From Luscinia megarhynchos (lineage: Eukaryota; Chordata; Aves; Passeriformes; Turdidae): a DNA stretch of 64,000 bases. Position numbers and translations under genes: made by a program. Below are positions 16,561 through 64,000 of the stretch, piece by piece. Each line of letters starts with the position of its first letter. The first letter of the stretch is position 1. Below the pieces are notes generated by a model. It had not been told where the DNA came from. It searched no databases and saw nothing but the letters and a program-made list of their open reading frames with translations. The stretch lies in contig JAPFBE010000077.1 in assembly GCA_034336665.1 (NCBI GenBank), forward strand, positions 123,967 through 187,966. Reading direction: 5' to 3'.

Positions 16561-17660
16561 GGAGGGCAGAGCTTGGATCCAATTTCTGTGTCCCAGGAGG
16601 GAAATCCCAAATAATCCCAAACGGATCCAAAAAACCCCAAACACAACAACAAAAAAGGTGGATCCCAAATGGATCCCAGTGGATCCAAAATGGATCCCAG
16701 TAAATCCCAGTGGATCCAAAATGGATCCCAGTAAATCCCAGTGGATCCAAAATGGATCCCAGTAAGTACCAGTGGATCCCAGTCCCCTCTGGATCCTCTC
16801 AGGGCCTGGGGAAAGTTCCAATAGTTCCAGATCCCAATGGGAATGTCACAATTCTGGGGGGATTTTTTATCCCAGTAAATCCCAGAGAATCCCAGTATGT
16901 CCCAGTGGATCCCAGTATGTCCCAGCGGATCCCAGTATGTCCCAGTGGATCCCAGTATGTCCCAGTATATCCCAGCAGATCCCAGTCAGAGCTCCTGGTG
17001 CTCAGGATTTCCAAAGAAGACCCTGACGAAGCGCCGGAGCCGCCGATCCCGACGGGAATGTCACAACTCATGGGGGATTTTTTTCTCCCAGCAGATCCCA
17101 GTATGTCCCAGTGGATCCCAGTATATCCCAGTATGTCCCAGTCAGGGCTCCTGGTTCTCTGGATTCCCCAAGAAGATCCTGGTGAAGCACCAGAGCCACG
17201 GATCCGAATGGGAATGTCACAGCTCATGGGGGATTTTAAAATCCCAGTAAATCCCAGCGGATCCCAGCATGTCCCAGTGGATCCCAGTATGTCCCAGTAT
17301 ATCCCAGTATGTCCCAGTATATCCCAGTATGTCCCAGTCAGGGCTCCTGGTGCTCAGGATTTCCAAAGAAGATGCGGGTGAAGCGCCAGAGCCGCCGATC
17401 CTGATGGGAATGTCATGGGGGATTTTTTATCCCAGTAAATCCCAGTATGTCCCAGCGGATCCCAGCATGTCCCAGTATGTCCCAGTATGTCCCAGTTAGG
17501 GCTCCTGGTGCTCCGGAGCCCCCGAGAAGATGCGGGCGAAGCGCCGGAGCCGCCGATCCCGACGGGAATGTCACAGCTCATGGGGGATTTTTTCTCCCAG
17601 CGGATCCCAGTATGTCCCAGTGGATCCCAGCAGGTCCCAGTATGTCCCAGTATGTCCCAG
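16561..17660. repeat. Tandem copies of the SIPA1L3-like coding end and stop within CCCAGTATGT array
   Basis: Units of about 156-196 bp each contain a core that matches the 3' end of the neighbouring coding exon (stop and last ~15-20 codons on the - strand), followed by CCCAGTATGTCCCAGTGGATC monomers. Core copies begin with the stop-codon complement at about 16798 (diverged), 16986, 17142, 17338 and 17496; the exon copy is at 17661. On the - strand the 16986 copy reads ...RRF.RVFFGNPEHQEL-stop, which ends in the EL expected for this family. The exon copy ends HQEP. Confidence 0.85.
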
Positions 17661-17810
17661 TCAGGGCTCCTGGTGCTCCGCAGCCCCCGAGAAGATGCGG
17701 GCGAAGCGCCGGAGCTGCCGCGCGGCCGAGCTCGACTCCTGCTGCAGCCGCCGGTTGTTCTGCCGCAGGTTGGCGACCTCGGCCTGCAGGAACACCTTGT
17801 CCTGCTTCTC
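17661..17810 (-). CDS. SIPA1L3: SIPA1L3-like terminal coding exon (C-terminal leucine zipper and stop)
   Basis: This intact 150-nt exon encodes 49 residues plus stop. It starts EKQDKVFLQAEVANLRQN, continues NRRLQQESSSAARQLRRFARIFS and ends GAAEHQEP. It matches the C-terminal coiled coil of SIPA1-like RapGAPs (EKQDKVVLQ.EVA.LRQNNQRLQEES...LRKFAEIF.REKKEL). The acceptor is CCCCCAG at 17811-17815. The previous exon ends in ...DLEK at phase 0, so the join DLEK-EKQDK is seamless. The last residues deviate from the family's REKKEL. The stop codon belongs to a repeat unit copied several times just downstream, so the C-terminus may have been rewritten by the array. Choice of SIPA1L3 over L1 or L2 rests on the 19q13 linkage with POLR2I and on sequence details recalled from the family. 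Confidence 0.88.
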   Translation of the reverse strand, partial: EKQDKVFLQAEVANLRQNNRRLQQESSSAARQLRRFARIFSGAAEHQEP

Positions 17811-20100
17811 CTGGGGGAACAGCGGGAATTCGGGAAAAATCCCCGAATTTTGGGGGGAAGAAATTCATTTTGGGGAAAAAATGGGGAATTTGGGGAAAAA
17901 ATGGGGAATTTTGGGGAAAAAATGGGGTTTTTAAGGTAAAAAATGGGCATTTTTAGGGGAAAAATGGGGATTTTGGGGGGAATAAATGAAGATTTTCCTT
18001 GGAAAATTGGAATTTTTTTTGGGTGAATTTTGAGGAAATTTTAGGGTAAAAAATGGGGATTTTGGGGAAAAAGTGGAGATTTTTTAAATGAATTTTTTAG
18101 GTGTTTTTTAGTCAAAAATGGGGAATTTTGGGGAAAAAAAATGGGGATTTTTGGGGAAAAAAATAAATATTTTCTTTGGAAAATTGAAAATTATTTTGGT
18201 GAATTTTGAGGAAATTTTAGGGTAAAAAATGGGGATTTTGGGGAAAAGTGGAGATTTATTTTTTAGTGAATTTTTAGGTGTTTTTTTTAGTGAAAAATGG
18301 GGGATTTGGGGGGATTTTTGTGAGAATTTTTGGGGATTTTGTTCTGCCGCAGGTTGGCGACCTCGGCCTGCAGGAACACCTTGTCCTGCTTCTCCTGGGG
18401 GAACAGCAGGAATTCAGGAAAAATCCCCGAATTTGGGGGGGAAAAATTAATTTTGGGGAAAAAATGGGGAATTTTGGGGAAAAAATGGGGTTTTTAAGGT
18501 AAAAAATGGGCATTTTTGGAAGAAAAATGGGGATTTTGCGGGGAAAAAATAAAGATTTTCTTTGGAAAATTGGAAATTTTTTTGGGGTGAATTTTGAGGA
18601 AATTTTAGGGTAAAAAATGGGGATTTTGGGGAAAAAGTGGAGATTTTTTTAAATGAATTTTTTAGGTGTTTTTTAGTGAAAAATGGGGGATTTTGGGGAA
18701 TTTTGGGAAAAAAATGGAGATTTTTTGGGGGAAAAAAATGGGATTTTTTAGGGAGTTTTTTGGGTTTTTTAGTGATTAACAGGTTTTAAAATTTTTAGTT
18801 ATTTTAGGGATAAAAATGGGATTTTTGGACAAATTCAAGACTTTCAGGGAATTTTGGGGATTTTTTTCAGAATTGCAGGGATTTTTAAGGTTAGAAATGG
18901 GGATTTTTAGTGACTTTTAGGTGTTTTTAGTGAAAAATGGGGAATTTAGGAGATTTTTGGGAAAAATGGGAATTTGGAAGAAATTCAAGAATTTCAGTGA
19001 ATTTTGGAGGAAAAATTGGGATTTTTTTTTGAAAATTGGGATTTTTTTCTGTGAATTTTAAGGTGATTTTTAGTAAATTATGGGGAAAAATGGGAATTTT
19101 TGTGGAGAAAATGTGGATTTTTTGGGGGGAAAAATGTGGATTCTTTTGGGGGGAAAAAAGAGGATTTGGGTGAATAAAAAGTGGATTTTGGGTGAAAAAT
19201 TAGGGATGCTTTGGGGAAAAAATGGGGATTTTTTCTGGTTAAAAAATGGGGATTATTGAAAAAAATCAGAATTTTTTTGAAAAAAATGGGAATTATGTGG
19301 GGAAAAAAAGTAGATTTTGGGTGGGGAAAATGGGGATGTTTGGGGAGAAAATTTGGGATTTTTTTGGGTGAAAAATGGGGACTGGGGGGAAAAATAGGAA
19401 TTTTTGGAGGGAAAAAAAGATTTATTTGGAGAAAAGGGATTTTTTTTGGTGGAAAAAAAATGGGGATTTTTTGGGGGAAATGGGGACTTTCAGGGAGAAA
19501 ATTTGGGGGTTTTTTTGGTGAAAAAAATGGGGATTACTGGAAAAAAAAATCAGAATTCTTGGGGGAAAAATGGGGATTGTTTTGGGAAAAAAAACGGAAT
19601 TTTTGGGGCGAAAAACGAGGATTTTAAGTGAAAAAAATGGGGATTTTTTGGGGGAAAAAAGGGGATTTTTGGGGAAAAAAATGGGGATTTTGGGTGGGGA
19701 AAATGGGGATTTTTATTGGGGAGAAAATTTTGGATCTTTTGGGGAAAAATGGGGATTTTTTGGGTGGGAAAATGGGGATTCTAAGTTAAAAAAATGGGGA
19801 TTTTTGGGGAAAAATGGGAATTATTTGGGGAAAATATGTAGATTTTGGGTGGGGAAAAATCGGGATTTTTGGGGAGAAAATTTGGGATTTCTGGGTGAAA
19901 AAAATGGGAATGTTTGGGGGGAAAAATGGGGATTTTTTGGGTGGAAAACTGAGGATTTTAAGTGAAAAAAAGGGGATTTTTTGGGGAAAAAAGGGGACTT
20001 TTGGGGAGAAAATTTGGGATTTTTTTGCGGGACAAAAAATGGATTTTGGGTGATTAAAAAAGGGGTTTTTTGGGTGTAAAAATTTGGGTTTTTTGGGAGC
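17811..20100. repeat. G-rich ATGGGGATTTTTGGGGAAAA intron array
   Basis: The last SIPA1L3-like intron is filled with units of about 20-30 bp built on GGGGAAAAATGGGGATTTTT. A tandem duplication with a 584-bp offset covers 17757 to about 18300 versus 18341 to about 18880 and includes part of the terminal exon. The complementary composition follows on the other side of the exon at 20107-20191. Confidence 0.92.
18341..18394 (-). pseudogene. Duplicated 5' half of the SIPA1L3-like terminal exon
   Basis: These 54 nt are identical to 17757-17810, exactly 584 bp away, and encode EKQDKVFLQAEVANLRQN. The acceptor CCCCCAG is duplicated too. The copy ends mid-exon and runs straight into repeat DNA, with no donor. 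On the - strand it lies upstream of the true exon, so the splicing machinery meets it first. If used, it would give a truncated zipper followed by intron-encoded residues. Confidence 0.92.
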
Positions 20101-20106
20101 TCTCAC

Positions 20107-20191
20107 CTTCTCCAGGTCGCTGTGCAGCTGCTTCAGCATCGCCTCCAGCTGGGAAACCTTCCCCGGCAGGTCCAGCGCCGCGGGGGAGGGG
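20107..20191 (-). CDS. SIPA1L3: SIPA1L3-like exon, PGKVSQLEAMLKQLHSDLEK
   Basis: This exon encodes SPSPAALDLPGKVSQLEAM then LKQLHSDLEK, the beginning of the C-terminal coiled coil (family: DL..KV.QLE.MLKQLHTDLQK). The acceptor is GGCGCAG (20192-20198) and the donor GTGAGA (20106-20101). The 85-nt length is one base plus 28 codons. The first C completes AG from the previous exon to give Ser, which confirms the short, GC-rich acceptor. The region has no frameshift. The exon sits at the junction between a G-rich array (left) and a C-rich array (right). Confidence 0.92.
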
Positions 20192-21940: not shown

Positions 21941-21946
21941 GGGTAC

Positions 21947-22052
21947 CTGAGGGGGGGGAGGGGCGGCGCCCGCGGGGGTGGGGGAGGGGCGGGGGGCGGC
22001 TCCGGGCCCAGGGCGGGGTCGGCCAGGGAGAACAGGGACACGGCTCGTTGCA
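21947..22052 (-). CDS. SIPA1L3: SIPA1L3-like exon, QRAVSLFSLADPALGPEPPP
   Basis: This 106-nt exon encodes (V)QRAVSLFSLADPALGP followed by a proline-rich stretch ending PPLPPL(S). It matches the SIPA1L segment AYEVQRAVSLFSL.DPALSP. The acceptor is TTTTCAG (22053-22058) and the donor GTACCC (21946-21941). Both phases fit: G from the preceding exon plus TG gives Val, and the final AG plus C gives Ser. The first ~20 nt of this exon together with its acceptor are repeated about 28 times in the upstream intron. Confidence 0.93.
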
Positions 22053-25000
22053 CTGAAAACACCCAAAATTATCCAAAATTTACCCAAAATCATCCCAAAA
22101 TATCAACAGAGAACAGGGACACGGCTCGTTGCACTGAGAAAAACCCAAAATTTACCCAAAAATACCCAAAATTATCCAAAATATCAACAGAGAGCAGGGA
22201 CACGGCTCGTTGCACTGAGGAAAACCCAAAATTATCCAAAATTTACCCAAAATCATCCCAAAATATCAACAGAGAGCAGGGACACGGCTCGTTGCACTGA
22301 GAAACACCCAAAATTATCCAAATTTTACCCAAAATCATCCCAAAAATATCCAAAATATCAACAGAGAGCAGGGACACGGCTCGTTGCACTGAGAAAACCC
22401 AAAATTATCCAAAATTTACCCAAAATTATCCAAAATATCAACAGAGAGCAGGGACACGGCTCGTTGGACTGAGAAACACCCAAAATTATCCAAAATTTAC
22501 CCAAAATTTACCCAAAATCATCCCAAAAACATCCAAAATATCAACAGAGAGCAGGGACACGGCTCGTTGCACTGAAATTATCCAAAATTATCCAAAATTT
22601 ACCCAAAATAATCCTAAAATTATCCCAAAAATACCCAAAAGTATCTCAAAATTTACCCAAAATTTATGCCAAAATATCCAGAATTTATCCAAAATTATCC
22701 CGAAATTTACCCAGAATTTATCCAAAATTTTCCCTAAATTTTCCAAAAATTTCAAAATATCAGCAGAGAGCAGGGACACGGCTCGTTGCACTGAGAAAAA
22801 AACCCAAAATTTACCCAAAATCATCCCAAAAATATCCAAAATATCAACAGAGAGCAGGGACGCGGCTCATTGCACTGAAAACACCCAAAATTATCCAAAA
22901 TTTACCCAAAATCATCCCAAAATATCAACAGAGAACAGGGACAGGGCTCGTTGCACTGAAATTATCCAAAATTATCCAAAATTTACCCAAAAATATCCAA
23001 AAACATCCCAAAATATCAGAGAGAGCAGGGACACGGCTCGTTGCACTGAGAAAAACCCCAAAATTTACCCAAAATCATCCCAAAAATATCCAAAATATCA
23101 ACAGAGAGCAGGAACACGGCTCTTGGCACTGAGAAAAATCCAAAATTTACCCAAAATCATCCCAAAATCATCCCAAAATATCAACACAGAACAGGGACAG
23201 GGCTCGTTGCACTGAGAAAAACCCAAAATTTACCCAAAAATATCCAAAATCATCCCAAAATGTCAACAGAGAGCAGGGACACGGCTCGTTGCACTGAGAA
23301 AAAACCCCAAAATTTACCCAAAATTATCCCAAAAATATCCAAAATATCAACAGAGAGCAGGGACACGGCTCGTTGCACTGAAATTATCCAAAATTATCCA
23401 AAATTTACCCAAAAATATCCAAAAACATCCCAAAATATCAACAGAGAGCAGGGACACGGCTCGTTGCACTGAGAAAAACCCAAAATTTACCCAAAATCAT
23501 CCCAAAAATATCCAAAATATCAACAGAGAGCAGGGACACGGCTCGTTGCACTGAAATTATCCAAAATTATCCAAAAATATCCAAAAACATCCCAAAATGT
23601 CAACAGAGAGCAGGGACACGGCTCTTTGCACTGAGAAAAACCCAAAATTTACCCAAAAATATCCAAAAATATCCCAAAATGTCAACAGAGAGCAGGGACA
23701 CGGCTCGTTGCACTGAAAACACCCAAAATTTACCCAAAATTATCCCAAATCATCCCAAAATATCAACAGAGAGCAGGGACACGGCTCTTTGCACTGAGAA
23801 AAACCCAAAATTACCCAAAAATATCCAAAAATATCCCAAAAATATCCAAAATATCAAAAGAGAGCAGGGACACGGCTCGATGCACTGAAAAAACCCAAAA
23901 TTTACCCAAAATTATCCCAAATCATCCCAAAATATCAACAGAGAGCAGGGACACGGCTCGTTGCACTGAAATTATCCAAAATTATCCAAAATTTACCCGA
24001 AATAATCCTAAAATTATCCCAAATTTATCCCCAAATTTACCCAAAATTATCTCAAAATTTACCCAAAATTTATCCCAAAATATCCAAAATTTATCCAAAA
24101 TTATCCCGAAATTTACCCAGAATTTATCCAAAATTTTCCCTAAATTTTCCAAAAATTTCAAAATATCAGTAGAGAGCAGGGACACGGCTCGTTGCACTGA
24201 AATAATCCAAAATTATCCAAAAATTACCCAAAATAATCCTAAAATTATCCTACATTTATCCCAAAATATATCCAAAATTATCCCAAAATTTATCGAAAAT
24301 TATCTCAAAATTATCCAAAATATCAACAGAGAGCAGGGACACGGCTCGTTGCACTGAAAACACCCAAAATTTACCCCAAAACATCCCAAAAATATCCCAA
24401 AATCATCCAAAATATCAACAGAGAGCAGGGACAAGGCTCTTTGCACTGAGAAAAACCCAAAATTTTCCAAAATTATCCAAAATTTACCCAAAAATATCCA
24501 AAATATCAACAGAGAGCAGGGACACGGCTCGTTGCACTGAAATTATCCAAAATTATCCAAAATTTACCCGAAATAATCCTAAAATTATCCCAAATTTATC
24601 CCAAAAAATATCCAAAATTATCTCAGAATTATCCCCAAATTTACCCAAAATTATCTCAAAATTTACCCAAAATTTATCCCAAAATATCCAGAATTTATCC
24701 AAAATTATCCCAAAATTTACCCAGAATTTATCCAAAATTTTCCCTAAATTTTCCAAAAATTTCAAAATATCAGCAGAGAGCAGGGACACGGCTCGTTGCA
24801 CTGAGAAAAACCCAAAATTATCCAAAATTATCCCAAAATTATCCCAAATTTATCCCAAAAAAATATCCAAAATTATCTCAGAATTATCCCCAAATTTACC
24901 CAAAATTATCTCAAAATTTACCCAAAATTATCTCAAAATTTACCCAAAATTTATCCCAAAATATCCCGAAATTTACCCAGAATTTATCCAAAATTTTCTC

Positions 25001-25570
25001 AAAATTTATCCCAAAATATCAACAGACAGCAGGGACACGGCTCGTTGCACTGAAATAATCCAAAATTATCCCAAAATGATCCAAAATTAATCCCAAAATA
25101 ATTCAAAATTATCTCAAATTTATCCCAAATTTTAACCAAAATTCTCCAAAATTTATCCCAAAAAGTATCCAAAATTATCTCAAAATTTATCCAAAATTAT
25201 CCTGAAATTATCCCAAAATGATCCAAAATTAATCCCAACATTATCCTAAAATTATCCCAAATTTATCCCAAATTTTATCCCCAAAAATATCCAAAATTAT
25301 CTCAAAATTATCCCAAAAAATATCCAAAATTATCTCAGAATTATCCCCAAATTTACCCAAAATTATCTCAAAATTTACACAAAATTTTGACAGAATTTAT
25401 CCAAAATTTATCCCAAAATATCCAAAATTATCCCAAAATTATACCAAAAATTTACCCCAAATTCTCCCAAAATTTATCCAAAATTTTCTCAAAATTTTCC
25501 CAAAATTTACCCCAAATATCCCCCGAGAACAAGGACAGGGCTCTTTGCACTGAGATTATCCCAAATTATC
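22053..25570. repeat. VNTR of about 28 copies carrying a splice acceptor and exon head
   Basis: Units of roughly 80-100 bp (some 150-260 bp) each contain CAGGGACACGGCTCGTTGCA followed by CTGA. On the - strand this is TCAG plus the first ~20 nt of the real exon at 22052 (TGCAACGAGCCGTGTCCCTG), then CTCTCTGTTGATATT. The rest of the unit is ACCCAAAATTATCCAAAATT-type filler. Copies are seen at about 22110, 22196, 22278, 22371, 22449, 22553, 22770 and onwards to 24778, 25029 and 25530. Most keep the AG and the exon-edge bases unchanged; a few vary (22449 has TTGGACTGA). Confidence 0.95.
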
Positions 25571-29758: not shown

Positions 29759-29768
29759 CGTGTCTCAC

Positions 29769-29864
29769 CCTCGTAGGCCGTGGCCGCGCTCACCAGCGTT
29801 GCCCACTCCAGCCCGGCCGCGTCCGGCAGCGGCATCAGCCCCGGCTCCAGCCTGGCCACGGGCC
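29769..29864 (-). CDS. SIPA1L3: SIPA1L3-like exon, LEPGLMPLPDAAGLEWATLV
   Basis: The 96-nt exon encodes (G)PVARLEPGLMPLPDAAGLEW then ATLVSAATAYE(V). It aligns with the conserved SIPA1L block DPGLMPLPDTA.GLEWSSLVNAAKAYEV. The acceptor is TGTCCCCAG just above 29864 and the donor GTGAGA (29768-29763). Its phase (2 nt, 31 codons, 1 nt) matches both neighbours. The frame is open and undamaged. It is a strong diagnostic exon for the family. Confidence 0.94.
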
Positions 29865-32885: not shown

Positions 32886-32893
32886 TTTCCCAC

Positions 32894-33041
32894 CTTTCCT
32901 GCAGTCCTGGCCCCTCCTGTGGGGGAGGGTGCTGCTCCCCGGGAAGTTTTCGGGGAATTCCCGGATTTGGGGGTCGCAGCTCCCGGGATTGTCCCGGCGG
33001 CTCCCGCAGAGCGACTCGTCCGACAGCGTCCGCTGCAGGGG
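32894..33041 (-). CDS. SIPA1L3: SIPA1L3-like exon, PLQRTLSDESLCGSRRD
   Basis: This 148-nt open exon encodes PLQRTLSDESLCGSRRDNPG, then about 29 less conserved residues ending SSTLPHRRGQDCRK(G). RTLSDES(L/I) is a hallmark of SIPA1-like proteins (LQRTLSDESLC in SIPA1L3). The acceptor is TCCCTCCCCAG above 33041 and the donor GTGGGA (32893-32888). The final G plus GG of the next exon restores Gly. The segment after SRRD is shorter and more divergent than expected. Immediately upstream of the acceptor the polypyrimidine tract merges into a 1.8-kb array. Confidence 0.93.
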
Positions 33042-33051
33042 CTGGGGAGGG

Positions 33052-34860: not shown

Positions 34861-34926
34861 AGAAAATATGTGGAAATGGGTTTTCTGGGTCCAGGGATGT
34901 GGAATTTGGGAGCTCCCGTCTCACAC

Positions 34927-35083
34927 CTTGAGGGCACTCGGGGCTCGAGGGCGGGCCCGTGTCCATCAGGATGAGGCGCTTCCAGGTAGATCTCGATGGA
35001 GAGGATTTGAGGAGGCTGAGCAGGCGCGAGGTCCCGCAGGGGAGCCTTGAGCACGCTGCTGCGCCCAAACTACGTTCACCTGC
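34927..35083 (-). CDS. SIPA1L3: SIPA1L3-like exon, frameshifted (KRLILMD region)
   Basis: Pieces in different frames match the family block ending ...LRDL..SP..SKSSIE.DLKKLI.MD...: LKAPLRDLAPAQ, then SIEIYLE, then KRLILMDTGPPSSPECPQ, and finally a frame with SALK that would join PLQRTLSDES at phase 0. The donor is GTGTGA (34926-34921). The acceptor is CCCCAG (35089-35084), or GCAG four bases further in. No single frame is both open and correctly phased, so at least two indels are present. The acceptor region and first ~20 nt are repeated eight times in the upstream intron. It is unclear whether the damage is real or a consensus error. Confidence 0.72.
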
Positions 35084-37800
35084 CTGGGGAAATTCCAGAA
35101 AATTCCAGGAATTCTGAACAAAGATCACAAAAATTCCATGAAAATCCGCTAGAAATTCATCACATTCATCGAAATTCATCGAAAATCCCATAAAAATCCC
35201 CAAATCCCTGGAGCCGTGGCTGCCGAACCACGTTCACCTGCCTGGGGCACAAATTCCATAAATTCAGGAATTCTTAACAAAATTCCTATAAAAACCCATG
35301 AAAAACAAAAAATCCCATGAAAATCCCGTTAAAATTCATCCAAAGTTCGAAAGTCAAAAAATCCCCAAATCCAGAGCCATAGCCTAACCACGTTCACCTC
35401 GAAAATTCCAAGCTCAGGAATTCTTAACAAAATCACCAAAAATTCTATGAAAAGACAAATCCCTGAAAGACATCCCATGAAAATCCCGTTAAAATTCATC
35501 AAATCCCACAAATGTCCCCAAATCCGGGCCGTGGCTGCTAACAGTTCACCTGCCTGGGGACAGGAATCCATGGAATTCATGGAAAATTCAACAGAAATCC
35601 CAAAAACCCATGAAAAAACAAAAATCCCATGAAAATCGTTAAAAATTCATCAAAATTCGCCAAATCCCACAAAAATCTGAGCAGACACGGCTGAAAATTC
35701 GTGGGATTCCAGAAAATTCCTATAAAAACTCATGAAAAAACAAATCCCATAAAATCCCCGTTAAAATTCATCCAAAAATTCACGCTGCTGATCCCTATCC
35801 CAGACATCGACTTGGCGGAACCACGTTCACCTGCCTGGGGACAGGAATCCATGGAATTCATGGAAAATTCCAACAAAATCCCCAAAAACCCATGAAAAAA
35901 CAAAAAAATCCCATAAAATTCTAAAAATCATTTGGGGATTCCAGGAATTCAAAAATATCATGGAAAATAATTCAAAAATCCCCAAAAAATCCCATAAAAA
36001 TCAGCGTTAAAAATTCATTAAAATCACATTAAAAATTCCCATTAAAAATCCCATTAAAATTCGATTTAAAATCCCATTAAAGTCCATAAAAATTCCCATT
36101 AAAATTCCAAAAGTTTTCCATTAAAATTCATTTAAATCCCATAAAAATCCCCAAATCCCGGAGCCACGGCTTCCCCAACACGTTCACCTGCCTGGGGAGG
36201 GGGGAAATCCCAATAAAATCATTGGGAATTCAGGAATTCCAACAAAATCCCAAAAAATTCCATGAAAAATCAAAAAAATCCCATAAAAAGATCCCGTTAA
36301 AAATTCCTTCGAAATCCCCTTACAAATCCCATTAAAAATTTCCAGAAAAACCTCATTAGAATTCCATAAAAATCTATTAAAATTCTTGTAAAAATCCCAT
36401 TAAAATTTCATTAGAATCCCATTAAAAGTCCATTTACAATTCCAGAAAAAACCTCATTAAAATTGCATTAAAAATCCCATAAAAATCACATTAAAATTGT
36501 ATTAAAATTTCTATCAGCCCCTCTAAAATCCTGTAAAAAGTTCCATTAACATCACATTTAAAAATCCCATTAAAATTCCAGAGAAAACCTCATTAAAATT
36601 CCATTAAAGGTCCCATTAAAAACCCATTAAAATTTTTGTAAGAATCCCATTAAAATTCTATTAGAGACCCTATTAAAATTTCCATAAAAAGTCCCACTAA
36701 AAATCCTGTAAAATTCCATTAAAATCATATTAAAATTCCAGAAAGAAAACCTTATTAAAATTCCATAGAAATCTATTAAAGTCCCATTAGAATTCCATAA
36801 AATCCCATTAAAACTCCATAAAATGCCATTAAAATTTCCATTAAAAATTCATTTAAATCCATAAAATCCCACAAATCCAGACTGCTGCTGCTCCCACCAC
36901 GTTCACCTGCCTGGGGAGGAATTCCAGAAAAATCATTGGGGTTCCAATAAAATCCCCAAAAATTCATGAAAAAACAAAAAATCTCATAAAATCCGTTAAA
37001 ATTCCATAAAAATCCCACTAAAACTCGCAGAAATTCCATTAAAATCGCTGTTAAAAATTCCATTAAAAATTCAATTGAAATCCCATTAAAATGTCATTAA
37101 AATTCCAATAAAATCACATTAAAATCCCATAAAATTCCCATAAAAATGCCATTAAAATCTCATTAAAATTCCAGAAAAACCTCATTAAAATTCCATAAAA
37201 ATCCCATTAAAATTCCCATTAAAAATTCCAGAAAAACCTCATTAAAATCACATTAAAAATCCCATTAAAGATGCTACTAAAAATCATCAAAATCCCATTA
37301 AAAGTCATAAAAATTCCATTAAATTCCATTAAAAATCCTATTAAAATTCCCATTAAAATCCCATTAGAGAAACTCGGTTAAAATTCCAGAAAACCTCATT
37401 AAAATTCCATTAAAATCCCATTAACATTCCATTAAATTCCCATAAAAATCCATTAAAATTCCATAAAAATCCATTAAAACCCACTAAAATCCCATTAAAA
37501 CCCGATTCAAATTCCCACTAAAGATCCTATAAAGGATTCCATTATAATCCCTTTAAAATTCTCATTAAAATTCCAGAAAAAACCTCATTAAAATGCCATA
37601 AAAGGTCCATAAAATCCTAATAAATTCCATTAAAATCCACTAAAAGATTCCTATAAAATTCCCATTAAAATTCCATTAAAATCCATAAAATTTCATTAAA
37701 ATTCCATTTCAAATTCCCATTAAAATCATATGTTGCCTCAACACCTTCACCTACCTGAGGACACAAATTCCATTGAAATCCCAAAACAATCCCAGGGAAA
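35084..37800. repeat. AT-rich CATTAAAATTCCA array with eight acceptor-edge copies
   Basis: Tandem AATCCCATTAAAATTCCATA units of about 10-20 bp. Embedded at about 35072 (true edge), 35229, 35388 (partial), 35545 (partial), 35820, 36177, 36898 and 37738 (diverged) are copies of CCACGTTCACCTGCCTGGGG. On the - strand this is CCCCAG, GCAG and the first bases of the exon (GTGAACGTGGTT). Copies nearest the exon are closest together. Confidence 0.93.
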
Positions 37801-39015: not shown

Positions 39016-39204
39016 GTTTTGCTCTCCGGGGCTCGTCCTGAGCCTCCAGCCCTGGCCCCGCCCCAGCCTGCTGCCCCAGCCTCGGCCCAGGCCCTGCCCC
39101 CCGGCCCAAGCCCCTGCCCCCTGCCCCCTGCCCTCGGCCCCCTAGGCTTTGGCTCTGCAGGGAACGTGGGGAAGGATTTAGGGAACCAGCATGACAGCTG
39201 GGAC
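39016..39204 (-). CDS. Candidate SIPA1L3-like exon, GC-rich and low complexity
   Basis: An island of GC-rich sequence flanked by GTGAGT (39015-39010) on the 3' side and two possible acceptors, CCCCAG|GTCCCAGCTG at 39204 and CCCTGCAG|AGCC at 39154. From 39154 one frame is open and reads SQSLGGRGQGAGG...LEAQDEPRRAK; another gives PKPRGPRAGG...APESK. I cannot match it to a specific SIPA1L segment. Its position fits the low-complexity stretch between PLWHVP and KRLILMD. The acceptor sequence between the two AG sites is repeated in the upstream intron, supporting the view that this is an exon edge like the others. Confidence 0.4.
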
Positions 39205-42200
39205 CTGGGGAGAGAAAAGAAAGAAAAAATCAGAATTTTGTAAAAAAATTAAAAATATTTTCCAATAAAATTTCTGTTAGGATTTTCTTTAGGTAAAGGG
39301 AAATTTTTAGGAAAAAATTGGGAGTTTTAGGAAAAAATTGGCGTTTTAGCATACTTAAAATTCGAATTTTTTAGCTAAAAATTTGGGAATTTTTAACTAA
39401 AAATTTGGGAATTTTAACAAGAAACCCCAGGAATTGATAGGGAAAAAATGAGGATTTTTAGGAAAAAATTGAGAATTTTGTAGAAAAATTGGGAATTTTA
39501 CATATGGGAATTTTAAGCAAAAATGGAATTTTTTAGGAAAAAATCGGGAATTTTTAACTAAAAATTTGGGAATTTTAACAAAAAACTCCAGGAATTTATG
39601 AGAAAAAAAAGGTAATTTTTTGTTTTTAATGGGAATTTTAAGAGAAAAATTAAGAATTCTGGGCTCTGCCAGGGAAGGATTTGGGAACCGATGCTGACAG
39701 CTGGGACCTGGGGAGGAAAAAAGAAAAAGGGAAAAAATCAGAATTTTTGTAAAAAATTAAAATGTTTACAAATAAAAATTTCTGTTAGAATTTTTAGAAA
39801 AAAGAAATTTTTTAGGATTGGGAGTTTTTAACTAGGTAAAATTGCGAATTTTTAGCCAAAAATTTGAAATTTTTAACTAAAAATTAGAGGGAGTTTTCAA
39901 CAAGAAACCCCAGGGAATTTATAGAGAAAAAAATGAGGATTTTAGAGATAGTGAATTTTTAGCAAAAACAAATTAAATTTTACAGCAAAAAATGGGAATT
40001 TTACAGGGAATTTTTAGGAAAAACATCGTGGAATTTTTCTAAACAAAAGAAATTTGGGAATTTTAACAAAAAACAAAAGTCCCAGGAATTTATGGTAGGA
40101 AAATAATAGGAATTTTAAGAGAAAAATTGGGAATATCTGGCTCTGCCAGAGAGGAAGGATTTGGGGAACCGTAGCCCGACAGCTGGGACCTGGGGGAGGA
40201 AAAAAATCAGAATTTTTTGTAAAAAAATAAAAATGTTTTCCAATAAAATTTCTGTTAGAATTTTTTAGAAAAAATGGGAATTTTTAGGCATGATTAGGAG
40301 TTTTAGGAAAAATTGGGAGGTTTTTAAGCATAAAATTCCAAATTTGTAGCCAAAATTTGGGAATTTTTAACTAAAAATTTAGGGAATTTTAACAAGAAAC
40401 CCCAGGAACTGATAGGGAAAAAAAATGAGGATTTTTGAGGAAAAAATTGGAATTTTTAGAAAAATTTGGAATTCTTTATTAAAAAGCATAATTTTATGAA
40501 ACATGGAAAGCTTTTAGGGAAAAAATTGGGCATTTTAAAGAAAATTCCTAATTTTTGAACACACACTTCGCACTTTCTAACTAAAAAGATTTGGAATTTC
40601 TAACAAAGCAGCAGGAATTTATAGAGACGGGATTTTTTGGAAGAAAAAATGGGAAGCTTTTTGGAAAGAAAAAAATTGGGAATTTTAAGCAGGGGAATTT
40701 TAAGCAAAAAGGGAATTCTTTAGGAAAAGCATCGGGAATTTTTAAACAAAATTTGGGAATTTTAACAAAAAATCCCAGGAATTTATAGAAATTTTTTTTT
40801 TTTTTTTTAAAAAGGAATTTTAAGGAGAAAAATTGGGAATATTGGCTCTGCCAGGAAGGATTTCGAACCCGGCATCAGACAGCTGGGACCTGGGAGGAAA
40901 AAAGGGAAAAAAATCAAATTCTTTGTAAAAAATATGTTTCTTTCAAATAAAATTTCTGTTAGAATTTTTTAGAAAAAATTTTTAGGAAAAAAAATTAGGG
41001 AGTTTTTAGGAAAAAATTGGGAGGTTTTGACCACAAAGAGTTTCCAAATTTAGGAAGCTAAAAATTAGAATTTTTAACCAAAAAATTTGGGAATTTTAAC
41101 AAGAAACCCCAGGAGATTGATAGGGAAAAAAATGAGGACTTTTTAGGATTAGGAAAATTTCTTTTAGAAAAAATTTAGAATTTTAGGTATGAATTTTAGG
41201 AAAAAATTAGGGGAGTTTTAGGGAAAAATTGGGCATGATCATAAAAAATTCCTAATTTTTAAATAAAAAAATCAGTGATTTTAACTAAAAATTTGGGAAT
41301 CTTTTAACAAACAACCCAGGGAATTTATAGAGAAAAATGAGGATTTTTTGGAAAAAAAATGGGAAGTTTGGGAAAAAAATTAGGGAATTTTAAGCAAAAA
41401 AGGGGGAATTTTTTACAGAGGGATTTTAGAAAATACATCGGAATTTTTAACCAAAAATTTGGGAATTTTGAACAAAAAGCCCAGGGAATTTATAGGAAAA
41501 AAATGTTGTTTTTTTAATGGGAATTTTAAGAGAAAAATTGGGAATTTTGGCTCTGCCAGGAAGGATTGGGAACCGACTTGCACTGCTGGGACCTGGAGGG
41601 GTGGAAAAAGAGAAAAATCAGAATTTTTATTAAAAAAATTAGAATGTTTTACATTAAATAAGAGTTTTAGAAAAAAGTTAGGAGTTTCTCACAAAAGAAA
41701 ATTGGGAATTTTTAAGCAAAAAAATGGGAATTTTAGGAAAAAGTTAAAAGTTTTAACTAAAAATTTAGTGGATTTTAGCCAAATATTTGGGAATTTTAAC
41801 CAAAAAACCCTCAGAATTTTAAGAAAAAGTACTCCCAGAATTTTTTAAGAGAAAATTAGGGATTTTTAAGAAAAAAAATTGGGAATTTTTAGGGAAAAAA
41901 TCCGGGAGTTTTTAATCAGCAAAAATTACATATTTTTAGCTCAAAATTTTGAGAATTTTATTTAAAAAAAGCCCCAGGAATTTATAGGAAAAAAATGAGG
42001 ATTTTTAGGAAAAAAATTGGGAATTTTAAGCAAAAAATGGAAACTTTTAGGAAAAAAAATGGGAATATTTAGAAAAATTAGGAATTTTTAAGCAAAAATT
42101 GTGAATTTTTAAGCAAAAAGAAATTTGGGAATTTTTAACAAAAAAGACCCAAGAGTTTTTAGAAAAAAAAGAGAATTGTTAGGGAAAAAATTGAAGTTTT

Positions 42201-44596: not shown

Positions 44597-44825
44597 CTGG
44601 GCTGGGCGGGGCCAATCCCACAATTCCCTTACGCGATCCCAGAATTCCGGTGGGTCAATCCCAGAATCCTCTTTATGCCCTTCCCACAATTCCTTAAGTC
44701 AATCCCAGAGTTCCTCGCTTCCTTCCCACAATTCCTCAGGTCCTTCCCAGAATCCTTTATAGTCCATCCCACAATTCCTCATACAATCCCAGAATCCTTT
44801 GTGTCCCTTCCCAGAATCCTTTATG
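44597..44825. repeat. CAATCCCAGAATCCTTTATG minisatellite beside a candidate exon
   Basis: About ten units of 20-25 bp (CCCAGAATCCTTTATGCCCT, CCCACAATTCCTCAGGTC and similar). On the - strand these read AAAGGATTCTGGGAAGG. The right-most unit abuts the candidate exon at 44826-44902. A GTGGGT donor-like site lies at 44596-44591, so a 306-nt exon including the repeat is possible, but the in-phase frame meets a stop. Confidence 0.7.
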
Positions 44826-44902
44826 CCCTTGCCGCCATTCCAGGCCTCGGCCTCGCTGGAGGCGGAGCTGGAGAGGGGGGAGGGGCTGCAGGAGGGCGCG
44901 GC
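44826..44902 (-). CDS. Candidate SIPA1L3-like Ser/Pro-rich exon
   Basis: Behind a good acceptor (TCTGTTCCCGCAG, 44915-44903) the - strand reads AAPSCSPSPLSSSASSEAEA then WNGGKG before entering the minisatellite. Ser-rich blocks like this occur in SIPA1L proteins between the PLWH and TLSDES segments, but the match is compositional only. The 3' end is unclear: no GT donor is seen at the junction with the repeat. The coding assignment is tentative. Confidence 0.42.
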
Positions 44903-44909
44903 CTGCGGG

Positions 44910-48985: not shown

Positions 48986-48994
48986 GGCTCTCAC

Positions 48995-49064
48995 CTTGCT
49001 CAGGTGGGTGGGGAATCCTTCGGGGCTTCTGAACCTGAGCGGGCCGGGACGTGCCAGAGCGGCT
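48995..49064 (-). CDS. SIPA1L3: SIPA1L3-like exon with PLWHVPA motif
   Basis: The 70-nt exon has acceptor TCTCCCAG (49072-49065) and donor GTGAGA (48994-48989). In one frame it reads PLWHVPARSGSEAPKDSPPT then a stop (TGA) 9 nt before the donor. PLWH(V/S) is a conserved SIPA1L segment downstream of the PDZ. A different frame ends FPTHLSK without a stop, so a 1-nt indel would rescue it. Either the donor is used after a frame correction or the exon is damaged. The identification rests on one short motif plus good splice sites and correct order. Confidence 0.6.
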
Positions 49065-49072
49065 CTGGGAGA

Positions 49073-50130: not shown

Positions 50131-50805
50131 GGATGGGAATCCCATTCCCAATTCCCACCATTCCCAAAACTTTCCCACCATTCCCAAATTTCCATCATTC
50201 CCAAATTTCCACCAATCCCAGGTTTCCACCATTCCCACTTTCCCACCATTCCCAAATTTCCACCAATCCCGAAATTTCCCACCATTCCCACCTTTCCATC
50301 ATCCCCATCTCTCCCCATTCCCCATCCCATCATTCCCAAATTTCCCACCAATCCCAAATTTCCATCATTCCCAAATTTCCCACTCAATCCAAATTTCCCA
50401 CCATTCCCAAATTTCCACAATTCCCCAGATTTCCCACATCATTCCCAAATTCCCATGATTCCCAAAGTTCCCACCATTCCCAAATCCCATCATTCCCAAA
50501 TTTTCCCTCCCCATTCCCAAATTTCCACCAACCACCTCCCACCATTCCCACATTTCCCACCAATCCCACATTCCACCAATCCCAAATTTCCCTCCCCTAT
50601 CCTAAATTTCCCACCATTAATTCCCTCAAATTTCCCACCATTCCCAAATTTCCCACCATTTCCCAAATTTCCATCATTCCCAAATTTCCACCAACTTAAA
50701 TTTCCCATCATTCCCACAATTTCCAAATTTCCACCATTCCCAAACCCACCATTCCTAAATTTCCCATCATTCCCAGATTTCCACCAATCCCAAATTTCTT
50801 CTCGA
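50131..50805. repeat. CCACCATTCCCAAATTTCC array
   Basis: Units of about 15-19 bp, CCCACCATTCCCAAATTTCC and CCATCATTCCCAAATTTCC. The strand sense is opposite to the preceding block. It merges into a CGA-rich block near 50806. Confidence 0.94.
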
Positions 50806-52290
50806 TTCTATCTTCCATCGATTCCGACCGACGATCTCGACCTCGACGACGAACCGATTATTCGACGACTCCACGCCGACGATCCTTAATTTAATTTATC
50901 GACGATCTAATTTATGACTCATCGGACCATCCAATTCTCGACGACTTTAATTTTAATTTGATTTAATTTATTCTAATTCAATCTCCCCGACTCAATTTAA
51001 TTCATCCCAATTTAACGACTTCTAATTAATCCTTAATTTAATTAATCCCAATTCTCCCGACCCACGAATTCCCAACTTATTCTAACTCCAATCTTCCACC
51101 ACCCCATCTCCTAATCCCAATTCATCCTAACCAATCCCAACGACCAATCCCACGAACGACCTAACCGATCCTTAATCCAATTTAACGACCCCAACTTCAT
51201 TAATCTTCCATAACGACGACCGTACCGTAATCCTCTGAATTTTGAATCGACTTCCAGACCTTGTGAATTTCAGGGATACCGAATTTTGAACGAACCTCCA
51301 TCTGTTCTCGACCAACTTCCATTAATTTATTAACTTTAATGACTTCCACCGATCTTCAACGAACTCGATTCCCTGACTTCTCGATGATTTTAATCGACGA
51401 ATCGATTCTAATTCTCCGATTTTAATTTTAACGAATGACCGATTCTTTAATTCAATCGACCTTCTATCGATCGACGCCGATTTAATTTCTAATTTCTTAA
51501 TCGATTTAATATCCCCGACCGATTCTAATTTTAATCGACGCCCGACCTTCCCCTGACTCCACCGACGCTTTATTTATCGACCGATTCCACCGATGACGAC
51601 GACCGATTTATCAATTTACCGACTTCCCCACTTTCCCACTTCGTCCTTATCGACCGACCCCATCCTAACTAATTCCCACCTTCCCCACCAATTTTCCCCA
51701 ACTTCCCTTAATTCCACGACGATCCCTGTAATTTCCCACGACGACTTCCCCAATTCCTTAATCTCCGACGATCTTCCACTTTATCTCAATTCTCCATCCT
51801 TTCGCTGATTTCCAATTCCCTAACTTCCCAATCCCCATACATTTTCCAGACTCCCCACTTTCCCCATCTCCATTCCTTAACTTAATCGACGCCCGACCAA
51901 CCGACCTATCCTTAATCTCCGACCTCGATTCCTTGATCCATTCCAATCGATCTCCATCTTCCCTGACGCGATCGACGGACGACGCCGATGCCTTTGATTT
52001 TATCGACGAACTTTCCGCCGATTTTCCCCAATACTTTCCCAATTCGACTTAATTTCGATTCCCCACCGACGGACTCGACCCTAATCTTCCAACCGACGAC
52101 CGATTTATTTTCCTTAATTCTCCCACGGATCTTCTGAATTTCCACGACGCGACTCGACGCCCCCCAACTTTAATTCCCGACGATCCTCAATTCCCTAATC
52201 CTTAATCTCCCCAATTCTCAATTCCCCTTAATTCCTTAATTCCTCACCTTATCCCAATTCCTCACCTTAATTCCCCACCGTTCCCACTTC
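50806..52290. other. CGA-dense, G-poor block of unknown origin
   Basis: Unlike all other blocks, this 1.5-kb stretch combines TTAATTTAAT tracts with very many CGAC, CGAT and TCGA tetramers. On the + strand most G occurs within CGA. CpG is therefore frequent although overall GC is moderate. There is no clean monomer, and open frames are short. I recognise no gene. It might be a highly mutated satellite, a CpG-rich regulatory element, or a poorly called consensus. Confidence 0.5.
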
Positions 52291-52292
52291 AC

Positions 52293-52344
52293 CCTCGCTG
52301 TTCAAGTTGCCGGAGCTTTGCCGGAACGCGATACCGAACGCAAT
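52293..52344 (-). CDS. Candidate short SIPA1L3-like exon
   Basis: A non-repetitive 52-nt piece with acceptor CAGCTCAGTTTCAG (52358-52345) and donor GTGAAG (52292-52287). The frame continuing from the upstream 56898 exon reads LRSVSRSGKAPAT then stop. The other two frames are open (IAFGIAFRQSSGNLNSE and CVRYRVPAKLRQLEQR). SGK..P resembles SGKSTPSWQRSED and SSGNLNSE resembles SPSNLSSSSE of SIPA1L1, both weak. It is kept because it is a low-copy island with splice-like edges in the expected interval. Confidence 0.3.
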
Positions 52345-52359
52345 CTGAAACTGAGCTGG

Positions 52360-54110
52360 CAGGGAAACGAAAAACTAAAACTGAAAACTGAAACTGTAAA
52401 CGTAAAAAAAATTGAAAATGAAAAAAACAAAACGTAAATAAAAACCAAAATAAAACTAAAATTGAAAAATGTAAAACAAAATTAAAAATTGGAAAAAATT
52501 AAAAAGTTAAAAAAAATTGGGGAAAAGTAGTATGAAAATGGAAATGTGGGAAGGAATTGAAAATAAAACTGGAGAGAATGCAAAATTGGGGAAATTGTGA
52601 AAAAATGGGGAGGTGAAAAAATTCAAGCAAAATGGAAATTGGGGAAAATTGAGAAAATTGGGGAAAATTGGGGAAATGGGAAATTGGGGAAGTGGAATCG
52701 GGAAAAAATGGGAAAACTGGGGGAGTGGGGAGAGGTGGAAAATTTGGGAAAATTGGGGAAATGGGGAAAATGGCAGAGTTGGAAAAAGGAGAGAATTGGG
52801 AAATTGGGAATTGAGGAAATGGGAAATTTGGGAAAAAATGAGGGAAATTGAAAAAATTTGGGGAAAAAATTGGGGTAAAAATTGGAAAAATTTGGGGGAA
52901 AATTGGAGAAAAAATGGGAAATTGAGAAAATGGGAATTGGGGAAAAAATGGGGAAAAAACTGGGGGAGAGTGAGAGAGATTGGGGGAATTGGGGAAAAAT
53001 TGAAAAAAGTTGGGAAAAATGGAAAAATTGGGGGAAATGGGGAAAATGGAGAGGTGGAAAAATGGAAAAAATTGGGCAAAATGGAAATTGGGGGAAAATT
53101 GGAGAAAATTTGGGGGAAATTGGGAAAATTGGGGGAAATTGGGGAAATGGGAAAAACGGAAATTTGGGAAAAATTAGGAACAATGGGAAATTTGGAAAAA
53201 ATTGGGAAATTGCAAAAAATTTGGGGAAAAAGTGTGGGAAAATCGGGGAGGAAATGGGGGAAAAGGAGAAAATTGGGAAAAAATGGGAGAGCTGGAAAAA
53301 TGGGAAATTTGGGGAAAATGGGAAATTGGGGGAAAGGGGAAAATTTGGAATATAGTGGCATTTGGGAAAATTGGGGAAAAATGAGAATCTGGGAATATTA
53401 GGGTAAAAAATTGGGGGAAAATTGGGGGAAATGAGAAAACTGGGGAAAAAATAGGAAAATTGGGAAAATTGAGAGTTGGAAAAATGGGAGAATCTGGAAA
53501 AATGGAGAACTGGAAAAAATGGGAAATTGGGAATAAATGGGAGGAAACTCCAGGGGAAAAATGAAGAAAAAACTTGGGAAAAAATTGAGGAAAATTGGGA
53601 AAAATGGGGAAAATTTGGGAAATTGGGAGAAATGGGGAAATTGGGGGAAAATTGGGAAAAAATGGGAAATTTGGGGAAATTGGGAGAAATGGGAAATTGT
53701 GGGGAAAATTGGGAAAATTGGAAAAAAAATTGGGGGAAATGGGAAAGTGGGGAATAATGGGAAATTTGGGGAAATGGGAAAAATTGGGGAAAAATGTGGG
53801 GAAAATTGGGAGAAATTGGGGAAATTGGGAAAAATTGGGGAAAATTGGGGGGAAATTTGGGGAAATGAAAAATTGTGGAAAAATGGAAATTGGGGAGAAA
53901 ATGGGGGAAATGGAAGGAAATTTGGGAAAATTGGGAAAAATGGGGATGAAATTTGGGGAAAAAATGAGAAATTGGGAAAAAATGAGAAATTTGGGAAAAA
54001 GGGGAAAAATTTTGGAAAAATGGGAAATTTGGGGAATAAATGCAAGGGAAATTCCAGGGAAAGTGAAGAAAGAAAAAATTGGGAAAAATTGGGAAAAAAA
54101 AGGGAAATGA
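52360..54110. repeat. GGGAAAATTGGGGAAATTGG array
   Basis: The first ~150 bp are AAACTGAAAACTGAAACTG-like and A-rich. The rest is a purine-rich array of AAAATTGGGGAAATGGGAAA with a monomer of about 8-10 bp, almost free of + strand C. No exon was seen. Confidence 0.93.
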
Positions 54111-55350: not shown

Positions 55351-61975
<6,625 letters not shown>

Positions 61976-62007
61976 ATGCCACCAGCCCTCGGCCCAGCGC
62001 CACCCAC

Positions 62008-62270
62008 CTGCGGGCGGTTGCCGCCGCTGGCGGCACCACTGCCACCGTGACGGTGACCGAGGGCGTGCGCAGGTCGACGATTTAAGCTCTCGTGGGCTCA
62101 GCGCCACGCCGCCACCTTGCATCACCTCCCGCAGGCGTGCCTGCCGCGAGTCTTCCCGTCGTGGCTGCCGCGACTCTCCACTCGCCACGCTGCCGCCGGG
62201 TGCATCGTAGCCCAGCTGGCCCAGCCCGGCCAAGAGCCATGTCCACCGGGCGCAGCTCCGGCGCGGTGGC
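62008..62270 (-). CDS. SIPA1L3: SIPA1L3-like PDZ-domain exon, frameshifted
   Basis: The donor is GTGGGT (62007-62002) and the acceptor GATGCCAG (62271-62278). The 3' part reads IVDLRTPSVTVTVAVVPP then AAATARR, matching the end of the SIPA1L PDZ domain (MIDLLRTSVTVKVVIIPP...PRR). Upstream pieces in other frames give VALSPREL, QARLRE (family QAGLRQG), and GQLGYDAPGGSVAS (family LGFHV.YEG.VA.VE). At least three frame changes and an in-frame TAA just before IVDL are present. The exon order and the perfect phase join to 56898-57092 support orthology. The PDZ binds protein partners and follows the RapGAP domain, which should lie beyond the right edge. Confidence 0.75.
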
Positions 62271-63060
62271 CTGGCATCAGAGACGGTGACAGTTGGCATC
62301 AAAATTGAGATTTTTGGCTTTCTGGGTTTGGTTACGTTGTCGCTTAGTGGTCGGTCCCATTTTTTATGCCGGCTTCACTCTGCTTTGTTGTTTCCTCCAA
62401 TTTCCCCGCTTTTTTCTCAATCTTCATCATTTGCCCCCAATTCTCCTTTTACCCCACCCTCCATTTCCAACTCAATTCTACTGCATGTCACCCCACCTTT
62501 CCTCCATTTCTACCCCAATTTACTCCATTTTCACGCTTTCCATTACACTGCTTCCAATCTCAGCCCCCATTTCCTCCATTTTTCCTGATTTCTCTCCAAT
62601 CTTTCAGCCACTCTCCATCTGCACCCCATTTCTTCCATTTTGCCCACATCTCTATTTTCAGCCAATTTTCTCCATTTCACTACTTTCCTCCATTTTTTCC
62701 GCACTTTCTGCCAAATTTCCTGATTTCTTCAATTTCACCCCACTCCTCCATTTTCACCAGATCTCGCACCATTCTCACTCACCTCCACCATTTCAATCCA
62801 TTCTGGCCAAATTTCCTCAATTTCACCCCTCTTTAATTTTTTTCTCCATTTTACCCACTCTTCCTGATTTTGCTGTCCCCACTTCTCCATTTCCCCAATT
62901 TCCACGCCCCAATTCCTATTTTACCCCCATTTTTTCTTTTTTTACCCCTAATTTCCTGATTTTTTCCTACTTCTCCATTTACCTATTCCCACCGTGGCAC
63001 AGCCCGGGCGTGGTGGCTGGCACAGGGTGGGCATCAGATGAGATTGGTGTTAAAATCTGA
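62271..63060. repeat. C/T-rich intron array with one acceptor-edge copy
   Basis: Degenerate TTTCCTCCATTTTCACCCCA units (about 15-20 bp). Near 62990-63060 lies a second copy of the PDZ-exon edge: - strand TGCCAG then CCACCACGCCCGGGCTG versus the true GCCACCGCGCCGGAGCTG, plus ~50 bp of the same intron. The edge is at 63016-63018. The copies are about 750 bp apart. Confidence 0.85.
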
Positions 63061-63945
63061 GATTTTGGGGTTTTTTGGGTTTGTTACGAGCGTTTTGTTG
63101 GCGCCCCAAGTTTTCCCACTCCCATTTTCCCCTATTTTCTCCCCCACTCTTTCACCAATCCCATTTCTCCCCCAGTTTCCCTAATTTTCCCTCATTTCTC
63201 CCCCTTTTCCCCCAATTTTTCCCTCCCCCATTTCCCTCAAATTTTCCCCCATTTTCCCCCAAATTTTCCTAAATTTTCCTCAACTTTTCCCCAAAACTTT
63301 TCCCATTTCCCCAAATTTTCCCATTTCCCAAATTTTCCCACTTCCCCTAATTCTTTTCCTCAATTTCCACCAAAATTTTCTCCCACTTCCCCTTAATTCT
63401 TTCCCTGATTTCCACCAAAAATTTTCCCCCAATTTTTCCCCCCATTTCCTCCTCAATTTTCTCCCATTTCTCCAAATTTCCCCATTTCCCCCAACTTCCC
63501 CAAAGAATTTTTCCCATTCCCCCACTTTTCCCCTTATTTCCCCCAAAATTACCTCTTCAAATTTTCCTATTTCTTCTCCATAAATTTTCCCATTTTCCCC
63601 AAATTTTCCCCATTTCCCCAATTTTTCCCTCTTCCCCAATTTTTCTCCCCTAATTCTCCCCAAATTTTCCCAATTTTCTCCTCTCAAATTTTCCTTAAAA
63701 ATTTTCCACTTTTCCCCTCTCAAATTTTCCCCATTCTTCAAATTCTCCCCAAAAATTTTCCATTTCCCCAATTTTCCCCCAATTTCCTAAATTCCCATTG
63801 TCTCCTCGAATTTCCCTGCACCGCATTTTCCCCAATTTTTCCCATTTCCCCAAATTCCCAAAAAATTTTCTCCCATTTTCCCCAACTTTTCCCCATTTCC
63901 CGGCAATTTTTCCCCTTAATTTCTCCCAAATTTTCTTCCTCTACT
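63061..63945. repeat. CCCCAATTTTCCCATTTCC array
   Basis: Polypyrimidine-rich + strand, short units CCCATTTCCCCAAATTTTCC. No coding signal was seen on either strand. Confidence 0.93.
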
Positions 63946-64000
63946 TCTGAAGTGGTACAAAATGCGAAAGTGTTTCTGTCGATAAATGCGAAACGGTTAA
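63946..64000. other. Non-repetitive edge sequence
   Basis: The last 55 bases leave the array and contain a short direct repeat, AAATGCGAAA, at 63959-63968 and 63985-63994. On the - strand the sequence is open in at least one frame (...RNTFAFCTTSEVEE), but it is too short to identify. It could be the edge of the next upstream exon of the SIPA1L3-like gene. Confidence 0.3.

What the first reader, a model, noticed from the sequence alone, without database searches (positions are those of the whole stretch)
16798..64000. General pattern: independent minisatellites seeded at exon edges across one gene
Seen: at least five introns or flanks of the SIPA1L3-like gene carry arrays in which the repeated unit includes a piece of the adjacent exon and its splice site (22.05-25.57, 35.1-37.8, 39.2-43.0, 56.3-56.9, 62.3-63.0 kb), plus the stop-codon end (16.8-17.66 kb) and a partial exon duplication (18.34 kb). 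Monomers differ in every case, so these are separate events. Inference: exon edges are either hot spots for array birth or the only unique anchor left in repeat-filled introns, and selection keeps the copies adjacent to exons recognisable. I know of no named phenomenon that covers this.
Basis: partly seen in the sequence, partly recalled or inferred. Interest (0 to 1): 0.9.

Follow-up and report, generated by a model that had tools for sequence, protein, structure and literature searches.

The report
Intron repeats that swallow exon edges
In the SIPA1L3 gene of what is likely a perching bird (passerine), tandem repeats that fill the introns have run over several exon edges and the stop-codon end and copied one edge, splice site included, 28 times; this matches the recently named "exon stuttering" of chicken dot chromosomes, and repeats are not concentrated at the edges, so edge-crossing copies are likely just the exon copies that survive selection.

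Summary
The window carries the 3' half of SIPA1L3 on the minus strand; its closest relatives are passerine proteins. Partial exon copies with splice site lie in the adjacent intron at five acceptor edges and one donor edge, and copies of the coding end lie past the stop codon; no other intron scores alike. The inference does not hold as stated. The phenomenon has a name: "sequence/exon stuttering" on avian dot chromosomes (Hron et al. 2026, PMC12954441). In the 28-copy array, 24 copies share a base that the exon lacks, so the array most likely grew from its own copies. All 28 decoy acceptors keep AG; none gives an open exon. Best reading: local duplications born throughout non-coding DNA, filtered by selection on the mRNA. 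What this adds: a passerine example, a stop-codon end, and the no-peak profile. The right half of the window has broken exons, so its arrays are less certain.

The parts
17661..17810 (-). E1, last coding exon of SIPA1L3 (stop codon TGA at 17661-17663)
   Evidence: tblastn to P0001, 94% over 50 aa; splice acceptor checked
16986..17555 (-). Four direct copies of the stop-codon end of E1, downstream of the stop (at 16986, 17142, 17338 and about 17496)
   Evidence: identity 45, 45, 48, 55 of 58 to the exon end
18339..18394 (-). Single partial copy (56 nt, 100%) of the acceptor edge of E1 inside intron E2-E1
   Evidence: (111 bits)
20107..20191 (-). E2; no edge array counted (one 10-nt match just above shuffles at its donor)
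21947..22052 (-). E3 (QRAVSLFSLADP...), source of the largest array
22109..25553 (-). Array of 28 copies of the E3 acceptor edge (25-29 nt of exon start plus AG); 21 of 28 spacings are 80-92 bp
29769..29864 (-). E4; no edge array
32894..33041 (-). E5; no edge array counted (one 7-nt internal match just above shuffles)
34927..35083 (-). E6 (QVNVFGQPRL exon; frame broken in this assembly)
35207..36910 (-). Six detectable copies of the E6 acceptor edge; a weaker seventh near 37753 was placed by eye and aligned
   Evidence: (six edge hits)
39016..39204 (-). E7 (SQLS..PKSF exon; frame broken in this assembly)
39672..41592 (-). Four copies of the E7 acceptor edge, about 480-700 bp apart, each with AG and pyrimidine tract
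44824..44902 (-). E8; donor end uncertain, an 18-nt match at its low end and a straddling repeat
48995..49064 (-). E9 (EPLWHVPA exon; frame broken)
56898..57092 (-). E10 (GWSESLA-like exon)
56346..56737 (-). Copies of the E10 donor edge: one clear at 56590-56612 with GTGAGA, two weak ones near 56346 and 56737
62008..62270 (-). E11 (PDZ-region exon, frame broken)
62989..63017 (-). Single copy of the E11 acceptor edge, about 750 bp upstream in the intron

Best explanation
The introns of this SIPA1L3 gene are filled with local tandem repeats, some of which include an exon edge with its splice site, and these most likely arose as ordinary local tandem duplications born throughout non-coding DNA, of which the edge-crossing ones would survive because the original exon and its nearest splice site stay whole. 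Shown: the copies, their local placement, inclusion of splice sites, and a rise of repeat coverage from exon interior to intron without a peak at the edge. Inferred: selection removes duplications that would alter the mRNA, leaving edge-crossing pieces as the only exon-derived units; once seeded, an array grows by slippage or unequal exchange among its own copies (24 of 28 E3 copies share a base the exon does not have). It is an instance of the published exon stuttering of avian dot chromosomes.
For: Proximal 28, distal 0 hits; for all seven ends the best other intron scores 17-23 against 31-90 at home. Edge copies listed start 0-2 nt from the exon border, close to the published figure of over 90% within 1 base. 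Straddling repeats, score threshold 36: exon interior at least 45 bp from an edge 1 of 120 points, 30-44 bp 7 of 59, 15-29 bp 14 of 66, under 15 bp 15 of 44; exon ends 8 of 22; intron +15 bp 11 of 22, +30 bp 19 of 22, +45 bp 20 of 22, +60 bp 21 of 22; random intronic 557 of 600. Array E3: derived G at one site in 24 of 28 copies while the exon and 4 copies keep A, and relatives keep the Phe codon there, so growth was likely inside the array. Exons E1-E5 remain readable although arrays come close to them.
Against: Exon pieces (about 23-60 nt) are short compared with some spacings (480-750 bp), whereas uniformly placed units of that length would reach deeper; either deep pieces are selected against or the units grew after seeding. 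Exon ends were not compared with unconstrained points of equal uniqueness, so a modest edge preference masked by selection cannot be excluded. In the stop-end array identity falls with distance, which would also fit repeated copying from the exon. Exon-piece pairwise divergence (5.9%) is lower than spacer divergence (12.8%) in the 21 of 28 units of 95 bp or less (the exon's own unit is one of the 21), although spacer alignment is confounded by 10-bp subrepeats. One gene only; no population or multi-species DNA.
Confidence: 0.75

Rival explanations
1. Exon edges are birth hot spots: something at the exon-intron border (GC step, splice-signal tract, quadruplex, R-loop) starts duplication there.
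For: Local 10-mer repeats begin within 50 bp of 21 of 22 exon ends; seven separate ends have copies. Exons are 65-83% GC against 27-57% in introns.
Against: No peak at the edge; ends are straddled far less than random intronic points (8 of 22 against 557 of 600). Quadruplex motifs are not concentrated in edge arrays: 0 in the E7, E10 and E11 stretches, 1 in E6, 4 in E3, 3 in the E1 duplication, 8 in the stop-end array (793 bp, so about as dense as the richer introns), against 42, 31, 28, 23 and 10 in the five introns without counted edge copies.
Confidence: 0.12
2. Exon as ongoing donor: the exon edge is copied into the intron again and again (templated repair or conversion), so copies track the exon.
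For: Stop-end copies are most like the exon when nearest (55, 48, 45, 45 of 58); exon pieces diverge less than spacers in the E3 array.
Against: 24 of 28 E3 copies carry a base that the exon lacks; no significant distance trend in that array.
Confidence: 0.08
3. Assembly artefact: collapsed or mis-stitched long reads made the copies.
For: Exons E6, E7, E9 and E11 do not read in one frame against the Cinclus protein, itself labelled low quality, and 51-52 kb has an odd CpG excess, so the right half is of doubtful quality.
Against: The clearest cases (E1 acceptor, stop end, E3 array) lie in the left half, where E1-E5 read cleanly. The same kind of structure was verified in raw nanopore reads for chicken PHF8.
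Confidence: 0.05

Closest known systems
Sequence stuttering / exon stuttering of avian dot chromosomes (Hron et al. 2026, Genome Biol Evol, PMC12954441)
   Same: Partial exon copies starting at the exon border, with splice site, as direct tandem repeats in the adjacent repeat-filled intron; published exon part 20-187 nt (median 36) and 1-44 copies per expansion, here about 23-60 nt and 1-28 copies.
   Different: Their screen was chicken and introns only. They mention local repeat expansions in other birds and repeat variation in intergenic DNA; a passerine SIPA1L3 case and copies of a stop-codon end are not in what I read. I saw no edge-versus-random test in the sections read (7, 9 and 16 whole, 8 part 1).
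Introns made of tandem repeats in GC-rich avian genes (Beauclair et al. 2019, PMC6792250; passages seen)
   Same: Introns and flanks of chicken TNF-alpha, MRPL52 and others described as composed of tandem repeats.
   Different: No exon edge inside the repeat unit in the passages I saw.
Intron gain by tandem duplication of an exonic AGGT (recalled, no call)
   Same: Tandem duplication that carries splice signals.
   Different: There a new intron arises within an exon; here existing introns grow and the exon is unchanged.

Membership tests
Exon stuttering (Hron et al. [quoted passage not shown]
Exon stuttering (Hron et al. 2026) | Hits in neighbouring introns only, above shuffled controls (bit score 42.1 or more) | tested here: met
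   21 proximal hits at 42.1 bits or more, 0 distal at 30 or more; met in 3 of 11 introns (E2-E1, E4-E3, E10-E9) plus the 3' flank. E6, E7 and E11 fall below it and rest on the gapped search
Exon stuttering (Hron et al. 2026) | Source piece at the exon border (within 1 base in over 90% of cases), with splice site | tested here: met
   (counted copies listed are 0-2 nt from the edge); AG kept in 28 of 28 E3 copies
Exon stuttering (Hron et al. 2026) | Introns heavily covered by simple repeats | tested here: met
   local 12-mer and 10-mer repeats cover 81% and 91% of introns, 17% and 24% of exons
Exon stuttering (Hron et al. 2026) | Exon itself intact | tested here: inconclusive
   E1-E5 read cleanly; E6, E7, E9 and E11 are frame-broken, by assembly error or decay
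Exon stuttering (Hron et al. 2026) | Located on a dot microchromosome | not testable with these tools
   no chromosome assignment; the genome search did not complete
Exon stuttering (Hron et al. 2026) | Intron length polymorphic between individuals | not testable with these tools
   one assembly only

The most novel reading that the evidence does not exclude
Intronic copies act as a reservoir of exon edges: arrays mint ready-made splice acceptors and preserve ancestral exon sequence (one of the four E7 copies reads SQLSASVPKSF as in another bird protein while the exon itself reads SQLSCWFPKSF), from which a damaged edge could be renewed by conversion or an alternative edge recruited.
Probability: 0.04. 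Interest if true: 0.85.

Novelty: new member of a known kind. Interest (0 to 1): 0.38.

Why it matters
It adds a likely passerine gene and a stop-codon end to exon stuttering, described in chicken, and gives a simple test (repeat-straddling profile across the edge) that separates hot spot from selection filter and can be run genome-wide. Dozens of intact decoy splice sites next to a real one also make a natural experiment in splice-site choice. A practical point: public passerine SIPA1L3 protein models appear to contain array sequence read as protein (P0001), so annotations there need care.

Tried and rejected
Hot-spot reading: rejected. Acceptor bias: acceptors 5 of 11 against donors 1 of 10 with counted copies; too few to claim. 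Decoys under selection: AG intact in 28 of 28 E3 copies, found with a pattern that includes the AG and allows 6 substitutions but no indel; at the divergence of the other sites (18 mismatches in 784) 1.3 changes in the AG would be expected, so no sign of purging or protection. Coding use of decoys: rejected at E3, all 28 extended exons contain at least 2 stops. Quadruplex-driven edge arrays: not supported. RNA family: 0 Rfam matches at gathering threshold. PDB: no relevant relative (best E 0.035). Second occurrences of SVPKSF in ostrich, emu, Malurus and Passerculus models: loose pattern matches, judged on reading most of the stretches; of the 12 bird proteins and 13 motifs scanned, P0003 (Passerculus) alone shows clear internal duplications. 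Poly-A signal downstream of the stop: neither of two hexamers found in 15501-17661.
Full report
Gene. The region encodes the 3' half of SIPA1L3 on the minus strand. A 199-aa peptide read from five exons matches Pfam SPAR_C at 2.1e-27 and SIPA1L3 proteins of Cinclus (80% over 99% of the query), Chamaea and Passerculus (88% and 91% over 75%), all Passeriformes. The next nine entries, all birds, score 56-62%; they include Malurus, also a passerine. I placed 11 exons by translation, tblastn and splice signals. The species group and the dot-chromosome location are inferred.

Observation. Local repeats cover 81-91% of intron and 17-24% of exon sequence. A screen modelled on the published one gives 28 proximal and 0 distal hits at 30 bits or more, at E1, E3, E10 and the stop end; 21 reach the published threshold of 42.1 bits; the best score in 20 shuffles was 28.2. 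That threshold is met in 3 of 11 introns and in the 3' flank; E6, E7 and E11 do not meet it. Gapped searches against shuffles show edge copies at acceptors E1 (1), E3 (28), E6 (6, plus one internal match), E7 (4) and E11 (1), at donor E10 (1), and at the stop-codon end (4). For all seven ends the home intron or flank scores 31-90 and the best other intron 17-23. Matches above the shuffles that I left out of the count: E2 donor (10 nt), E8 low end (18 nt), E5 acceptor (7 nt, internal), E9 acceptor (22 nt, 15 nt from the edge), and five short matches at the E11 donor 23-24 nt from the edge. The seven array stretches are unrelated in 20 of 21 pairs; the E1 and E7 stretches share A-rich repeats (76% over 119 nt).

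Hot spot or filter. At score threshold 36 a local repeat straddles 557 of 600 random intronic points and 8 of 22 exon ends; thresholds 30 and 44 give 578 and 531 of 600 against 8 and 7 of 22. One of the 8, E8, has an uncertain end. Across the edge the fraction rises without a bump: exon interior 45 bp or more from an edge 1 of 120, 30-44 bp 7 of 59, 15-29 bp 14 of 66, under 15 bp 15 of 44; intron +15 bp 11 of 22, +30 bp 19 of 22, +45 bp 20 of 22, +60 bp 21 of 22 (the exon points are 5 bp apart and so not independent). This is what local duplication everywhere plus selection on the mRNA would give. A weak edge preference hidden by selection is not excluded.

How the arrays grow. In the 28-copy E3 array, 24 copies carry G where the exon and 4 copies carry A; related proteins keep the Phe codon of the exon, so A is likely ancestral and the variant was multiplied inside the array. 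There is no significant distance trend (rho 0.30, p 0.13). In the stop-end array, identity to the exon falls with distance: 55, 48, 45, 45 of 58. Among the 21 of 28 E3 units of 95 bp or less, exon pieces differ by 5.9% and spacers by 12.8%, a comparison confounded by short subrepeats in the spacer. Quadruplex motifs are few in most edge arrays but dense in the stop-end array (8 in 793 bp).

Splicing. All 28 E3 copies keep the acceptor AG, and none of the 28 would give an open extended exon, so any use would likely lead to nonsense-mediated decay (inferred). All four E7 copies and six of seven aligned E6 copies keep the acceptor.

Known work. Hron et al. 2026 (PMC12954441; I read the abstract, sections 7, 9 and 16, part 1 of section 8, and passages) named this as exon stuttering: 190 of 236 such introns on chicken dot chromosomes, copied pieces at the exon border with splice sites, median exon part 36 nt, 1-44 copies. 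They mention expansions in other birds and repeat variation in intergenic DNA, so the passerine and stop-end cases extend rather than break their description. SIPA1L3 is not in the main text; the supplement was not available to me. My searches (15-20 papers listed each) showed no passerine or stop-codon case in the titles and abstract openings listed. Beauclair et al. 2019 and Huang et al. 2023 I saw only in passages. The case is therefore a new member of a known kind.

Caveats. E6, E7, E9 and E11 do not read in one frame against the Cinclus protein, itself labelled low quality, while E1-E5 read cleanly. Against the other sequences of its own group, the E7 exon is the most deviant (36 of 90 against 25-32 of 85-87) and the E6 exon the second most deviant (28 of 60 against 17-29 of 57-61), so the right half may be poorly assembled or decaying. 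Conclusions rest mainly on the left half.

Noticed in passing
window 50800-52300: Stretch in intron E10-E9 unlike its surroundings: CpG observed/expected 2.18 and 78 CGA/TCG in 51001-52000; 52297-52400 reads like a bacterial-style ORF to the eye, but 52270-52420 has no E. coli match at 1e-5. One E9 match (52344-52365) lies in it.
   Followed up: partly
window 34927-62270: Exons E6, E7, E9 and E11 are frame-broken against the Cinclus protein, E1-E5 are clean: assembly error or decay.
   Followed up: partly
P0001 about residues 1050-1210; P0003 about 895-1005: Public passerine SIPA1L3 protein models appear to include repeat-array translation (Cinclus) and duplicated PDZ and GWSES exon pieces (Passerculus).
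   Followed up: partly
window 2738-2868, 4452-4549, 9363-9463: GC-rich unique islands left of SIPA1L3 that may be exons of a neighbouring gene; six-frame translations printed, not identified.
   Followed up: no
window 44640-44842: Tandem array beside exon E8 whose translation resembles the repeated segment of the Cinclus protein model, possibly an array shared between two passerines.
   Followed up: no
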